The translations under genes were made by a program, and so were the position numbers. Positions 17,975 to 24,021 of a DNA stretch of 25,334 nucleotides are shown in pieces (within the stretch, counting starts at the first letter, position 1; every line of letters begins with the position of its first letter). The DNA comes from a virus: IMG/VR virus record IMGVR_UViG_3300030109_000288, positions 11,498 through 36,831 of that record; one strand, 5' to 3'. Below the pieces are notes generated by a model, which worked only from the letters and a program-made list of their open reading frames with translations, was not told the origin of the DNA and ran no database searches.

Positions 17975-19705
17975 TTAGTGGGTAGCTGCCCAATTGTCTC
18001 CGACTTTGTATTCACCGTCCAATGGGCATCTCAGTTCTAAACCATCTCCAGCCGCCTTGATACACTCTACTGCCAACCATCCAAACTTTTCTGCTTGAGT
18101 ATCCCTAACCTCTACCTGAAACTCATCATGGATATTACCAACAAAGTTGTACTCTATACCATGTATATTAGCATACTCACTTAGTATTGTCAACGCTTTC
18201 TTCATAACAACCGCACCGGCTGACTGTAAAAGTGTATTCAAAGCTGCGTGTTCACTTCGGATTATCAGGCGTCTGCCGTCTAACCCCCTGAGGTGTCCTC
18301 TTTTGGTTGCCCGTATGACTCGTTCCCGTAGAGTTCGAAGAGATGGTGTGTTAGTGAGAAACTTTTCTTTAAGTTTTGCTCCGTCTCTACGAGAACCGCC
18401 GATAATGCTTCCGATCTTGGCATCTCCCGCGCCGTAGAGGAAAGCATAGATAAAAGTTTTAGCGTTGTCTCTTGTTGAAAGACCAGCAGCTTTCTGGTTT
18501 GCTGTATGTACGTCTCCGTTCGTGACTTCATGTGTATACTCCTCATCGTCCATGTAGTGTGCTAACATTCTTAGCTCCAGACCAGCGGCATCTACACCTA
18601 CCAATTTGAAACCTTTCGGTACTGTCCAACACCTGCGGCAATCAGTACCATACGGAGAGTAAGAGGCAGGAACCTGTGCCATGTTAGGGTTACTGTGCGT
18701 CATCCGTCCCGTGACTGCACCAATCGTATTGACCCTACCGTGCACTCTGCCGTCTTCCTCTACCGCTTCTATCCAAGACTGAACTTGTGCTGATCTCTTC
18801 TGTAGCAGTAGATACTCAGCGATTAGTTTGGCTTCGGGTATGTCCACCTCAGATAGAATACTCTCGTCAACAATGGCGTGTCCCTTTTCCGTAAAAGAGG
18901 AGGGCTTCCAACCGTAGAACTTCAAGTGCCTACCAATCTGTTGACGTGAACCTAGATTAAACTGAGGCCAATCTACCCGCGAAAATGGACCGTCAACGGT
19001 ATTGAAATCATCCCCAAGAAAGCGAAGCCCAACAGAACTGAGGGTGCCGTCTTTCTTAATTTTTGGATTGACTTCCTTAACAAATATCGGTAGCGGCGTG
19101 AACCTTTTATGTACTTCATCTTCAACCTCCATACTTCTCTGTTTCAAACGTGCTTGGATATCGAAAGCTTTCTCAAGGTCAAGCACCCACCCCTTGCGTT
19201 CCTGTTGAGATACTATCTCCTGAACCTTATGCTCCAGTTCAATAGACTCGCCGGGAAACTGAGTAAGCCTTTCGCAGAGGGTGGTGTATAGCTTAGTAGT
19301 TACCTCTACGTCACGCTCACAGTATTTAATCATCTCATCGGATAGCTTAGTCCAATCATCGTGGTCGCCCTTCTCAAAATGTAGGCGCTCACCCCATGCT
19401 CTCAAAGAATGTCCACCGTCTAGCTGTGGGTTGAACAAACGCGAGAGAACCAGAGTGTCTATAATCTTAACATTGTCAAAAGAAATTCCGAGGTGTTCTT
19501 CTAAAACGGGCCTATCAAAATTAATGATATTATGACCGATAACAATGTCAGCATCATTGATCTCCTTCTGTATTAAAGCAGTTTCTACATAGGGTTTCAA
19601 AAAATTCTTCTTGCTCTGTGTATTCAACTGCATCGTACCTACCATCCAGACCTTGCTTACGGGCAAAGCGGTAGTTTCGATATCTAGTATAAGCTTCTTT
19701 GTCAT
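17975..19705 (-). CDS. DNA polymerase, family A (T7 gp5-like)
   Basis: The 576-aa replicative polymerase has a 3'-5' exonuclease domain (Asp8 and Glu10 in LILDIETT; GHNIINFD with Asp64; YCERD with Asp132). The polymerase domain carries motif A GVDAAGLELRMLAHYM (Asp372), motif B RDNAKTFIYAFLYGAG (Arg412, Lys416, Tyr420, Tyr424) and motif C NIHDEFQV (Asp527, Glu528). It ends KVGDNWAATH, like T7. Tyr420 is the position equivalent to E. coli Phe762 and T7 Tyr526. The protein is ~130 residues shorter than T7 gp5: the thioredoxin-binding insertion is replaced by a ~35-residue stretch (about 214-248) and a smaller insertion near residue 470 is missing. The start is fixed by the exonuclease motif and by GGTGAG upstream. 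Confidence 0.96.
   Translation of the reverse strand: MTKKLILDIETTALPVSKVWMVGTMQLNTQSKKNFLKPYVETALIQKEINDADIVIGHNIINFDRPVLEEHLGISFDNVKIIDTLVLSRLFNPQLDGGHSLRAWGERLHFEKGDHDDWTKLSDEMIKYCERDVEVTTKLYTTLCERLTQFPGESIELEHKVQEIVSQQERKGWVLDLEKAFDIQARLKQRSMEVEDEVHKRFTPLPIFVKEVNPKIKKDGTLSSVGLRFLGDDFNTVDGPFSRVDWPQFNLGSRQQIGRHLKFYGWKPSSFTEKGHAIVDESILSEVDIPEAKLIAEYLLLQKRSAQVQSWIEAVEEDGRVHGRVNTIGAVTGRMTHSNPNMAQVPASYSPYGTDCRRCWTVPKGFKLVGVDAAGLELRMLAHYMDDEEYTHEVTNGDVHTANQKAAGLSTRDNAKTFIYAFLYGAGDAKIGSIIGGSRRDGAKLKEKFLTNTPSLRTLRERVIRATKRGHLRGLDGRRLIIRSEHAALNTLLQSAGAVVMKKALTILSEYANIHGIEYNFVGNIHDEFQVEVRDTQAEKFGWLAVECIKAAGDGLELRCPLDGEYKVGDNWAATH
18165..18193 (-). promoter_or_regulatory. Candidate sigma70-type promoter inside the polymerase gene
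   Basis: Minus-strand TTGACA (18193-18188), a 17-nt spacer and TAATAT (18170-18165), with TG one base before the -10. It lies about 190 nt before the end of the polymerase gene and would drive the exonuclease, endonuclease I and reductase genes. The same hexamers with the same spacing precede the SSB gene. It is coding sequence, so chance cannot be excluded. Confidence 0.45.
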
Positions 19706-19982
19706 TGATTAAAGTCTCACCATTTTTCAAAGCTACGTGTTCTAACCTGTGACAGTTACTACATAGTATAGCACACTTTGCTGCCTCTTGAAACACTTCT
19801 TTGTTCAACCTGTGTGATCTCCATTTAGAGGACTTCAAACCGAACTCTTTCTTAGACGGATCACGGTGATGGAACTCCAAGACCTCCTCTGGATACGTTT
19901 GACCGCATACCTCACAGGCGTAATTTGTTCTCATCTTGATATACAAAGAGCGGTTAAGTCTACCAAGTTCAGAACTCCTCAT
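19554..19982 (-). CDS. HNH endonuclease overlapping the polymerase gene
   Basis: I chose the ATG at 19982 (142 aa) because GAGG lies 6 nt upstream; the frame extends further (to 20042) inside the helicase gene. An HNH fold with a zinc-binding pair is readable: NYACEVCGQ (C23, C26), EFHHRDPSKKEFG (H38, H39) and CAILCSNCHRLEH (C74, C77, H78). Free-standing HNH endonucleases beside replication genes in phages are often homing nucleases. The gene overlaps the helicase 3' end by 14 nt and the polymerase 5' end by 152 nt in another frame. The overlapping C-terminal ~50 residues lie beyond the HNH core and may be a passive extension. Cleavage site unknown. Confidence 0.8.
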   Translation of the reverse strand: MRSSELGRLNRSLYIKMRTNYACEVCGQTYPEEVLEFHHRDPSKKEFGLKSSKWRSHRLNKEVFQEAAKCAILCSNCHRLEHVALKNGETLINDKEAYTRYRNYRFARKQGLDGRYDAVEYTEQEEFFETLCRNCFNTEGDQ

Positions 19983-21423
19983 CTGCAACCTCATGTACTT
20001 CAGGAGCGGCACCGGCAACCATCCTTCCCGTGTCCTCTTCATAGTACAGCCAGCCAGCGTGTCCTGTCCGTCCTGTGCGACGGCACTTCACAAGCTGCAC
20101 CTTAGTACAGTTACGGGTGTAGTCATCATCAGACATCTTGTCGCGACTCAGAAGCAGCGTGTTAAATGCTATCTGATTGATGGACCCTGACCCCTTCATG
20201 TCATATTCGTTGACATCGTGAGGGTCTTTCACACTAGGCTTGCGGAGATGGGATACGATTATGATTGACGCATTAGTTTCTTTGGAAAGTTTTAGGCACC
20301 TGTCCATAAAGCTATCAATCATTCCATTTTCGTTAGATGAAACCGCTGCTTGTAGTGGGTCAAGAATTATAACCTCACAGTCCATACCTTTAATTAGATA
20401 CCGCATACGAGAGAACAGATCATCAATATCAGAAGACCCCATGTGGTCATCAATGTGTATCCTGTCTGCCTCCTTCACCTCATCGTAGAACACACGGTAC
20501 TGACTGTAGTCTCTATTCTTTTCCTCTATAAGTCCGATGTTCACTCCTCCGATTACGCTAACTACATTTTCCGTAGTCTCACCTCTGTTCGACTCAAGGA
20601 ATACGGCACCGATCTTACGTTTAGTTTCTGTATACATACCGTACAGAAGGTTAGTCACGAACGTGGTCTTACCCACAGATGTTAAGGCACCTACTACAGT
20701 CACCTCCCCTGCCGCCATGCCACCGTTCATCATCTTGTTTAGCGTACCAAACGAGGAAGGGAAGGGGATAATCTCCGCTTTACCACGGTTCACGAACGCA
20801 TCCCAACAACTCTCATCTGATAGGGATACAACTCCAGCGGGTTTATAATCCTCCGCTCCCCACCATGACTTCACGAACTGCTGAACCTTACCACGTTGTA
20901 GCATCTCCCCTGCGTCCTTAAGTGGCAGGGATACCACCTTGGCTTTACCCGGTGAGAAGATCGACATCACCTCTTTCGAGGCTTGCTTTCCTGCCGCGTC
21001 GTTGTCGAAACAGATCACTACCTTTTCAAAAGACTCCAACCACTCTAAGCTTTCTTTAATATCCTTAGCTGCGGCAGCGGCCCCTCTTTTAAGACTAACG
21101 ACAGGATACTTTCCGTCAAACATTTCAGCTACAGCGAGCGCATCTACCTCGCCCTCCGTTACAGTGACGAACTTACCTCCCTTGTTCCATATGTTCTGGC
21201 CGAACAATCCTGTGCCTTGAAAAGTTCCTGTTGTATGGAAATTTTTGCTTGGGCAGTTTCGAACCTTAGTTCCCACCACTTCACCACCGTCCTGTGTGTA
21301 GTAGGGGTAGTGGTGCCTAAGTACCTGTCCACTTTCGTTGTCATACTCCAGAGTGACGCCGTAATCTTCGGCTATCCGCTGAGATATCTTCCTGTCAGTA
21401 ATTGGTCCTGATACACCAATCAT
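19969..21423 (-). CDS. Putative short helicase form from internal start (gp4B-like)
   Basis: The ATG at 21423 is codon 70 of the primase-helicase frame and would give a 484-aa protein lacking the zinc finger but keeping TOPRIM and helicase domains. T7 makes exactly such a form (gp4B) from Met64. Here the internal ATG is preceded by GAGAGGATTAGAA, a good ribosome binding site, and by the palindrome TGGGATCATCCCA whose last base is 19 nt before the ATG. The same element precedes true gene starts elsewhere in this genome. The call is a strong inference, not proof of expression. Confidence 0.6.
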   Translation of the reverse strand: MIGVSGPITDRKISQRIAEDYGVTLEYDNESGQVLRHHYPYYTQDGGEVVGTKVRNCPSKNFHTTGTFQGTGLFGQNIWNKGGKFVTVTEGEVDALAVAEMFDGKYPVVSLKRGAAAAAKDIKESLEWLESFEKVVICFDNDAAGKQASKEVMSIFSPGKAKVVSLPLKDAGEMLQRGKVQQFVKSWWGAEDYKPAGVVSLSDESCWDAFVNRGKAEIIPFPSSFGTLNKMMNGGMAAGEVTVVGALTSVGKTTFVTNLLYGMYTETKRKIGAVFLESNRGETTENVVSVIGGVNIGLIEEKNRDYSQYRVFYDEVKEADRIHIDDHMGSSDIDDLFSRMRYLIKGMDCEVIILDPLQAAVSSNENGMIDSFMDRCLKLSKETNASIIIVSHLRKPSVKDPHDVNEYDMKGSGSINQIAFNTLLLSRDKMSDDDYTRNCTKVQLVKCRRTGRTGHAGWLYYEEDTGRMVAGAAPEVHEVADEEF

Positions 21424-22704: not shown

Positions 22705-23226
22705 TTACTTGTCCTTTTCTTTAGTATTTACTTGATCCTCAAATCCGATGGTATACCAGATTGGTTCTGATGTAAACTGCCACCGGGCCATGTAAGATTT
22801 CTCGTTGATGTAGTAGTTACGGTACGCCATGATGGTATTCTCAGGCACCTTGCAGTAGTCGTGCATACACTGAGGTGGATCAGTGAAGGGACCGTTGCGT
22901 AATTCATACGGACAATTGCCCAAGTCCCTCACCATGCCGATCCTCTCGGTCTTGTGAACCTTTCCGTACCTCTTCGTGTACTCCTTACATAAACTATTAA
23001 GAAGGTTCCATAACCATGTGTAATTACTACGGTTTTCCCTAGCCCAGACTGCGCTTGGGTGGTTCTTATGGGTGGCCTTGTAGCAGTCAATGCTAGGCTC
23101 CCCGTCGATCTCATGGTGGGCAGTACTGAGTAGCTGGGCAGTCTCCAGTATCATTTTGACAACGTGCTTGTCGCAGTGCATCTTGGCGCACTGAACCGGA
23201 TCCCTGTCTAGGTAGAATATATTCAT
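22705..23226 (-). CDS. Conserved phage protein of unknown function (CDKHVVKM family)
   Basis: The 173-aa protein begins MNIFYLDRDPVQCAKMHCDK and continues HVVKMILETAQLLSTAHHEI. Later motifs are YKATHKNHPSAVWARENRSN, YTWLW, EYTKRYGKVHKTE and IMAYRNYYINEK. I recognise this combination from many phage genomes, marine ones included, as a conserved hypothetical family. The many invariant His, Cys, Asp and Lys residues suggest an enzyme, possibly acting on DNA or nucleotides. Its start overlaps the dCMP deaminase stop (ATGA). I do not assign a reaction. Confidence 0.75.
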   Translation of the reverse strand: MNIFYLDRDPVQCAKMHCDKHVVKMILETAQLLSTAHHEIDGEPSIDCYKATHKNHPSAVWARENRSNYTWLWNLLNSLCKEYTKRYGKVHKTERIGMVRDLGNCPYELRNGPFTDPPQCMHDYCKVPENTIMAYRNYYINEKSYMARWQFTSEPIWYTIGFEDQVNTKEKDK

Positions 23227-23678
23227 GCGTTTATAACCTCCATCTTAGCTTGGATAACCTGAACATTACCTTCTCTTAGAAAATCTAAACCTTCAGAACT
23301 TCGGTACTCTTCGGAGAAGATAACACAAACGATACCGGATTGCAAGATTAACTTGGCACACTGTAAGCACGGGGCATGAGTACATACTATCGTGGCACCC
23401 TCCCCACTTTCAGTAGCTCTTGCAAGCTTAGCTATTGCGTTGGATTCTGCGTGTAAGACTTGAGGTCTCGTAACCAGCTTCGGCTGTTCGTCCACATCAG
23501 TGCTATATAACTCTGACTCACAGTTATTATCCCAGCCCGATGGTGTACCGTTGTATCCGATGGATATGATACGTTCGTCTTTTACAACGATACATCCTAC
23601 TTTGAGTCTCCGCGCTGTGCTGCACTCAGCAAACGCATAAGCTGTTTCCATGTATGCAATTAAATGTTTCTCTTTCAT
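23223..23678 (-). CDS. Deoxycytidylate (dCMP) deaminase
   Basis: The 151-aa product has the zinc-dependent deaminase signature: HAESNAIAKL with His76 and catalytic Glu78, and APCLQCAKLILQ with Cys104 and Cys107. CSTARRLKVGCIVVKD and YNGTPSGWDNNCE are typical of dCMP rather than cytidine deaminases. It converts dCMP to dUMP, the substrate for thymidylate synthesis, and so complements the class II reductase encoded in the same unit. No thymidylate synthase is present in the window. It starts in an ATGA junction with a 30-codon membrane-protein gene. Confidence 0.93.
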   Translation of the reverse strand: MKEKHLIAYMETAYAFAECSTARRLKVGCIVVKDERIISIGYNGTPSGWDNNCESELYSTDVDEQPKLVTRPQVLHAESNAIAKLARATESGEGATIVCTHAPCLQCAKLILQSGIVCVIFSEEYRSSEGLDFLREGNVQVIQAKMEVINA

Positions 23679-23767
23679 AGGAACACCTCAATAATTATCA
23701 CGGTCACCAGTATAATCAGAAACACTGACAAGTCGTCGTTGATTGTTTTCATTATCTTTCTAAGCAT
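23675..23767 (-). CDS. Membrane microprotein (30 aa)
   Basis: This frame is far below usual calling limits but exactly fills the 88-nt gap between two genes. Its ATG forms TAATG with the upstream stop and its TGA forms ATGA with the dCMP deaminase start. The product MLRKIMKTINDDLSVFLIIL ending VTVIIIEVFL has a basic N-terminus and a hydrophobic segment (about residues 13-30), as in a single-pass membrane peptide. GGGG lies just upstream of the ATG; a second ATG (Met6) is possible. No homologue is known to me. Confidence 0.6.
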   Translation of the reverse strand: MLRKIMKTINDDLSVFLIILVTVIIIEVFL

Positions 23768-24021
23768 TAGCCCCAATCCTTCCTATCGTTTTCTTCACGC
23801 CAACCTTGCAAATACTCCGCAATCTGGGTCGCAGTCATCATCTCACGAGGTACTTTGTACCCGTTACTAGTTCCATTGGGCCAGTAGTGTGGGCTGTAGT
23901 TTCTGTTGTAGTACCTATCCGCTGAACCTCTGTCATATGGGCTTCCATGTGCGTGTTGCATTGCTATCTTTTCTCCTGCTTTCCGTAGTTTCGTTATGAT
24001 TTCCTGCGTTTCGTAGTTCAT
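23767..24021 (-). CDS. Conserved small phage protein (GSPYDRG...KDWG)
   Basis: The product is 84 aa. The N-terminal MNYETQEIITKLRKAGEKIA is a short helix that resembles the N-terminus of the neighbouring upstream gene. The rest, GSPYDRGSADRYYNRNYSPH, then YWPNGT, MTATQIAEYLQGW and the ending KDWG, fits a family I recognise from marine phages (PYDRG.AD.YY.R...PH....G). Function unknown. It begins in an ATGA overlap and ends in a TAATG junction. Confidence 0.75.
   Translation of the reverse strand: MNYETQEIITKLRKAGEKIAMQHAHGSPYDRGSADRYYNRNYSPHYWPNGTSNGYKVPREMMTATQIAEYLQGWREENDRKDWG

What the first reader, a model, noticed from the sequence alone, without database searches (positions are those of the whole stretch)
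23675..23767. 30-codon membrane microprotein coupled on both sides
The frame fills the gap between two genes precisely, with TAATG on one side and ATGA on the other, and encodes a basic N-terminus and a hydrophobic helix. Such exact packing is unlikely for a random frame. It lies in an accessory part of the unit beside dCMP deaminase and could modify the host membrane or block superinfection.
Basis: partly seen in the sequence, partly recalled or inferred. Interest (0 to 1): 0.5.

Follow-up and report, generated by a model that had tools for sequence, protein, structure and literature searches.

The report
Tiny swappable phage membrane-protein gene
A 30-amino-acid membrane-spanning protein gene sits wedged between two genes of an uncultured phage; it is a real, selected gene found in a small group of relatives in several exchangeable versions, but what it does is not known.

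Summary
Observation confirmed. Minus-strand frame 23767..23675 encodes MLRKIMKTINDDLSVFLIILVTVIIIEVFL, with TAATG to the upstream gene, ATGA to dCMP deaminase and its own Shine-Dalgarno (SD). All 14 closest relatives keep an intact 29-35-codon frame there (15 of 15 with the window). Selection acts on the protein: dN/dS <=0.17 within alleles; the most diverged homologous pair shares 18 of 28 residues (10.3 expected). Four sequence types share one plan: basic N-terminus, acidic pair, 18-residue transmembrane helix to the C-terminus.

New here: the gene is exchanged as a cassette. Phages 93-96% identical in dCMP deaminase differ at 43-54% of microprotein sites, while the window shares a 95%-identical microprotein with a phage whose deaminase is only 77% identical. 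One relative lacks dCMP deaminase but keeps the microprotein, so it is not that gene's leader or partner. The last codons double as the next gene's SD.

Best reading: an accessory inner-membrane effector, N-in/C-out, docking on a host or competitor membrane protein. Superinfection exclusion is possible but untested. A new family of a known kind (phage small membrane proteins).

The parts
23675..23767 (-). 30-aa single-transmembrane microprotein gene (allele A)
   Evidence: intact in 15 of 15; purifying selection; one predicted helix, residues 2-29, mean pLDDT 89
23720..23737 (-). codons 11-16 (DDLSVF): acid pair and start of the transmembrane stretch; an acid pair before the helix is present in all alleles
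23771..23784 (-). SD-like AGGAAGGATTGGGG of the microprotein, inside the R-K-D-W-G codons of the upstream gene
   Evidence: sequence; K, D, W and G invariant or nearly so in ten aligned upstream-gene relatives
23684..23689 (-). GAGGTG: codons 27-28 (E-V) of the microprotein that also form the SD of dCMP deaminase
   Evidence: GTGAGG (V-R) in allele D of L092
23767..24021 (-). upstream 84-aa 'KDWG' family gene, unknown function; anchor of a variable slot
   Evidence: no Pfam, PHROGs or NCBIfam match
23223..23678 (-). dCMP deaminase
   Evidence: PF00383 E 3.9e-22; phrog_174 E 4e-50
22705..23226 (-). pyrimidine-dimer-glycosylase-like gene (PF03013; phrog_624 'DNA binding protein'); its homologue follows the microprotein directly in L088

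Best explanation
The frame is a real gene for a single-span inner-membrane microprotein. Shown by sequence: conserved frame, selection on the amino acids, one hydrophobic helix, allele exchange. Inferred: it is made together with the replication and nucleotide-metabolism genes by translational coupling; the basic N-terminus stays in the cytoplasm (positive-inside rule, recalled) and the helix spans the inner membrane with almost nothing outside. It has no room for catalysis, so it most likely works by helix-helix docking on, or oligomerising around, another inner-membrane protein. The exchange of four alleles between otherwise similar phages suggests that the partner differs between hosts or competing phages: a host membrane or defence protein, or the entry apparatus of a superinfecting phage. 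My split: real gene 0.95; single-span membrane protein 0.9; accessory effector on a host or competitor membrane target 0.45, of which superinfection exclusion is perhaps 0.15.
For: Intact in 15 of 15. dN/dS 0-0.17 in six within-allele pairs; L092/L088 share 18 of 28 residues against 10.3 expected, reached in 1 of 20,000 simulations (3 of 20,000 in the reverse direction); 52-61% of neutral simulations hit a stop. Shared plan in nine representatives: 2-4 basic residues, acidic pair, 18-residue helix with mean KD 2.2-3.1. Helix 2-29, pLDDT 89. Cassette exchange: L083/L093, L083/L084, L094/L084, L094/L093 and L093/L084 differ at 43-54% of microprotein sites but 4-7% of dCMP deaminase sites (Fisher p 2e-17 to 3e-24), and the reverse for WIN/L083 and WIN/L094 (p 1e-4 and 2.5e-4) (profiles). 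Kept without dCMP deaminase in L088.
Against: No homologue of known function: no match in PHROGs, Pfam or NCBIfam, none in PDB sequences, none in phage records (the low-complexity filter may hide hits). The whole region is mosaic, so exchange need not mean conflict. Alleles could differ by drift in a low-constraint helix; common descent of all four is not proven (WIN/L092 p 0.09). No expression, localisation or phenotype data. Host unknown. The positive-inside argument is weakened by the two acidic residues next to the membrane.
Confidence: 0.5

Rival explanations
1. Leader or coupling peptide: the frame is translated only to carry ribosomes to dCMP deaminase; the peptide has no role.
For: TAATG/ATGA overlaps; the last codons are the SD of the next gene.
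Against: Retained when dCMP deaminase is absent (L088); amino acids, acid pair and hydrophobicity are conserved, not only the frame; direct overlap of the two neighbours would suffice, as at other junctions of the unit; no RNA structure.
Confidence: 0.08
2. Lysis-related protein: an extra holin or antiholin, or a lysis-timing regulator.
For: Small single-span proteins are used in phage lysis (recalled).
Against: The endolysin (2162-2623, PF00959) lies on the other strand about 21 kb away, next to a 144-aa protein with hydrophobic stretches (1731-2165, phrog_6637 of unknown function) that could be the holin; the microprotein lies among replication genes.
Confidence: 0.1
3. Membrane-depolarising peptide like TisB or YohP that slows host metabolism.
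For: Similar size: TisB 29 aa (passages of PMC8309996), YohP 27 aa with lowered membrane potential (abstract of PMC12719787).
Against: No Rfam RNA and no promoter-like site on the opposite strand over the gene; the helix is nearly uniformly hydrophobic instead of carrying the polar strip described for TisB; an infecting phage needs the host's energy (inference).
Confidence: 0.12
4. Membrane tether for the phage's own replication or nucleotide-synthesis machinery.
For: Sits in the replication and nucleotide-metabolism unit.
Against: Allele exchange independent of the neighbouring enzyme; kept without dCMP deaminase; not found after the upstream gene in more distant phages (11 of the 25 loci, two of them cut off at the contig end).
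Confidence: 0.12
5. Chance open frame without function.
For: A packed frame arises in 8.9% of shuffles.
Confidence: 0.03

Closest known systems
Phage small proteins (<100 aa) as a class (review PMC11323111, passages read; Fremin et al. 2022 seen only in its reference list, not held)
   Same: Very short phage gene missed by family libraries, in an accessory region.
   Different: This family, its single-span plan and its allele exchange are not described in the passages I read, which deal mostly with soluble small proteins.
Phage superinfection-exclusion membrane proteins (T4 Imm, HK97 gp15; named in PMC11436027, passages read)
   Same: Small phage proteins; T4 Imm is listed there as inhibiting DNA injection.
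   Different: No sequence match; 30 aa with one span here, the known ones being longer (recalled); no exclusion assay.
Bacterial single-span microproteins such as YohP (27 aa; abstract of PMC12719787)
   Same: Essentially one transmembrane helix, no catalytic room.
   Different: Phage-encoded; no sequence relation known; the stress role does not carry over.
Membrane type I toxins, e.g. TisB (29 aa; passages of PMC8309996)
   Same: Size and helical membrane nature.
   Different: No antisense RNA found; different charge pattern.

Membership tests
Phage single-transmembrane small protein | Protein-coding frame under selection | tested here: met
Phage single-transmembrane small protein | One hydrophobic helix long enough to span the membrane | tested here: met
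   18-residue stretch, mean KD 2.2-3.1 in nine representatives; helix 2-29
Phage single-transmembrane small protein | Located in the inner membrane | not testable with these tools
   Needs fractionation or a tag
Superinfection exclusion protein (Imm / HK97 gp15 type) | Profile relation to known families | tested here: not met
   No family in PHROGs, Pfam or NCBIfam; a 30-aa query has little power
Superinfection exclusion protein (Imm / HK97 gp15 type) | Blocks DNA entry of a second phage | not testable with these tools
   Needs a plating assay
Type I toxin-antitoxin | Antisense RNA antitoxin | tested here: not met
   No Rfam match in the window; no promoter-like site on the + strand within 23675-23767 or the 1.1 kb before it; an unknown RNA or other promoter type is not excluded
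Holin / lysis protein | Placed in the lysis cassette | tested here: not met
   Endolysin at 2162-2623, opposite strand
dCMP-deaminase-linked protein | Always with dCMP deaminase | tested here: not met
   L088; 2 of 68 distant deaminase loci with any abutting short hydrophobic frame

The most novel reading that the evidence does not exclude
A roughly 90-base swappable specificity cassette: phages of this clade carry alternative membrane microprotein alleles at one locus, exchanged by recombination in conserved flanks whose coding sequence doubles as ribosome-binding sites at both ends. Each allele would be matched to a particular host membrane or defence protein, or to a competing phage, making it one of the smallest protein determinants of phage-phage exclusion or counter-defence.
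Probability: 0.2. Interest if true: 0.65.

Novelty: new member of a known kind. Interest (0 to 1): 0.36.

Why it matters
If true, it shows that a 30-codon membrane gene can be under protein-level selection and exchanged as a unit between phages, with both ends built into the ribosome-binding sites of neighbouring genes. Such genes fall below usual annotation cut-offs, so a layer of phage-host membrane interactions may be unrecorded. The allele set gives a ready comparative test of whether the partner is on the host or on a rival phage.

Tried and rejected
Link to dCMP deaminase: rejected. RNA element over the frame: rejected. Homologues in bacterial genomes: the pattern for the A/D core hit 20 stretches in genome contigs; translated in frame, none is a comparable short membrane frame, so I treat all 20 as chance. 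Homologues elsewhere in viral contigs: the A/D core pattern hit 3 contigs and the allele-B pattern 9, all already known members; these patterns are narrow and cannot exclude diverged relatives. tblastn against phage records: no match. PDB sequences: none. Phage classification: polymerase 54% to pelagiphage HTVC103P, but terminase and capsid proteins are only distantly related to any record, so the host stays unknown.

Enrichment of short hydrophobic frames after the upstream 'KDWG' gene: 11 of 50 distinct ends; 5 of 44 outside the window clade against 5 of 330 control gene ends (Fisher p 0.003; 0.026 after collapsing to three families). The criteria were set after seeing examples, so I hold it as a lead only. 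(a loose start-stop pattern in the own record) taught nothing. Allele A against D is not better than chance in residue identity for WIN/L092 (11 of 29, p 0.09) though it is for WIN/L088 (11 of 28, p 0.002), so common descent of all four alleles is not proven. Nothing in print was found on this gene by the searches (listings and abstract starts; some passages and one abstract).

Full report
What is there. On the minus strand an ATG at 23767 opens a 30-codon frame ending TGA at 23675. The frame overlaps the stop of an 84-aa upstream gene (TAATG) and the start of dCMP deaminase (ATGA). Its SD-like sequence (AGGAAGGATTGGGG) is made of the last codons of the upstream gene, whose K-D-W-G end is invariant or nearly so in ten aligned relatives; the SD of dCMP deaminase (GAGGTG) is made of the microprotein's own E-V codons. 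dCMP deaminase is PF00383 / phrog_174; the next gene is pyrimidine-dimer-glycosylase-like (PF03013 / phrog_624); the microprotein and the upstream gene match no family.

Is it more than chance? Exact packing alone is not striking: 8.9% of 20,000 dinucleotide shuffles of the gap still give a packed frame. Packing plus a hydrophobic helix is: 0.08%, and none as hydrophobic as observed. The comparative evidence is stronger. Searches with dCMP deaminase (80 loci, 12 of them at 81% identity or more) and the upstream gene (25 loci, 14 of them at 73% or more) give 14 distinct close relatives. All 14, and the window, keep an intact frame of 29-35 codons at this place. Seven of the 14 show the same allele-B stretch and look like near-identical phages, so nine representatives were used for comparisons.

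Selection. Within alleles, changes are mainly synonymous: dN/dS 0.09, 0.17 and 0 for the three allele A pairs and 0, 0.06 and 0.08 for the three allele B pairs (few changes each). The informative pair is L092/L088, 31 of 84 bases different yet 18 of 28 residues the same; random substitution gives 10.3 on average and reached 18 in 1 of 20,000 runs, and puts a stop in the frame in 61%. WIN/L092 alone is not significant (p 0.09).

Architecture. In all nine representatives the first nine residues carry net charge +2 or +3, two acidic residues (DD, DE or EE) stand just before the membrane, and an 18-residue hydrophobic stretch runs to the C-terminus (in L088 the best-scoring stretch starts at the third D). 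AlphaFold2 gives one helix, residues 2-29, mean pLDDT 89. The charged residue late in the helix is E in alleles A-C and R in D. Both lie in the codons of the next gene's SD (GAGGTG read as E-V, GTGAGG read as V-R), so this charge may be a by-product of the ribosome-binding site (inference).

Cassette exchange. Between L083 and L093, 34 of 78 microprotein sites differ but only 23 of 450 dCMP deaminase sites; for L094/L084 the figures are 41 of 78 and 21 of 450. Conversely WIN/L083 differ at 4 of 78 microprotein sites but 104 of 450 deaminase sites. Profiles in 45-base bins show identity falling at the microprotein and recovering on both sides in the first kind of pair. The upstream 1 kb also shows gene replacements, so this is a mosaic region and exchange is not unique to the microprotein. 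What is special is that, within this clade, the replaced unit is always another membrane microprotein of the same plan.

Not tied to dCMP deaminase. In L088 the microprotein is followed directly by the glycosylase-like gene. Of the 68 more distant dCMP deaminase loci, two (copies of one sequence) have any short hydrophobic frame abutting the deaminase; random anchors give 39 of 3400. More distant relatives of the upstream gene carry other genes in the slot (11 of the 25 loci, two cut by contig ends; 45 of the 55 loci inspected). Unrelated short hydrophobic frames follow this upstream gene in 5 of 44 distinct ends outside the clade against 5 of 330 control ends, a post-hoc lead.

The phage. The window is 11498-36831 of a 36,831-base IMG/VR record. 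Its DNA polymerase is 54% identical to pelagiphage HTVC103P; passages of PMC8528129 describe uncultured groups near HTVC103P-type phages, one of them with unknown hosts. Capsid and terminase point to no close cultured phage. The endolysin lies at 2162-2623 on the other strand. No tRNA, no Rfam family.

Mechanism. The sequence supports a single-span membrane protein co-translated with replication genes. The step to function is inference: with no soluble domain, docking of the helix on another membrane protein is the likeliest mode, and exchange of alleles suggests a variable partner. Host membrane or defence proteins and the entry machinery of rival phages are the candidates; T4 Imm (passages of PMC11436027) is a precedent for a phage protein that inhibits DNA injection. 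A depolarising peptide, a lysis regulator or a tether remain open at about 0.1 each.

Verdict. It is a new family of a known kind, with an unusual allele-exchange pattern.

Noticed in passing
L120:3909-4001, L121:349-444, L122 near 3683, L126:558-635, L128 near 1772, L129 near 3110, L130 near 1688, L131 near 2718 (all +): A second, unrelated family of 26-31-aa membrane microproteins (hydrophobic N-terminus, basic tail; e.g. MNIFASILAIFLGRAILIEQKLKGDR) in a related phage group. In five of these eight loci its stop overlaps the start of the glycosylase-like gene (ATGA or GTGA); in the others it stands before other genes. No PHROGs match for the two tested.
   Followed up: partly
window 23767-24021 (-) and 50 distinct relatives: Widespread phage protein family ending in near-invariant K-D-W-G (also HGSP.DRG.AD), no library match; its last codons AARGAYTGGGG form an SD-like sequence, and the gene that follows varies greatly between phages.
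   Followed up: partly
L327, L182, L240 (found as controls): Another 27-30-aa membrane microprotein family in phage contigs, e.g. MKGMIFLLSLLALAHMGIMFWMWSHAI.
   Followed up: no
L083, end of the upstream gene: One base fewer just before the usual stop extends the upstream protein by two residues past KDWG while the microprotein frame stays intact.
   Followed up: no
window 23223-23678: The window's dCMP deaminase gene is only 73-78% identical in DNA to those of the other clade members, some of which are up to 96% identical to each other: probably replaced separately.
   Followed up: no
window 19554-20042 (-): 162-aa frame with a C..C..H..C..C pattern resembling an HNH endonuclease (recalled), overlapping the end of the primase-helicase gene; possible homing endonuclease.
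   Followed up: no
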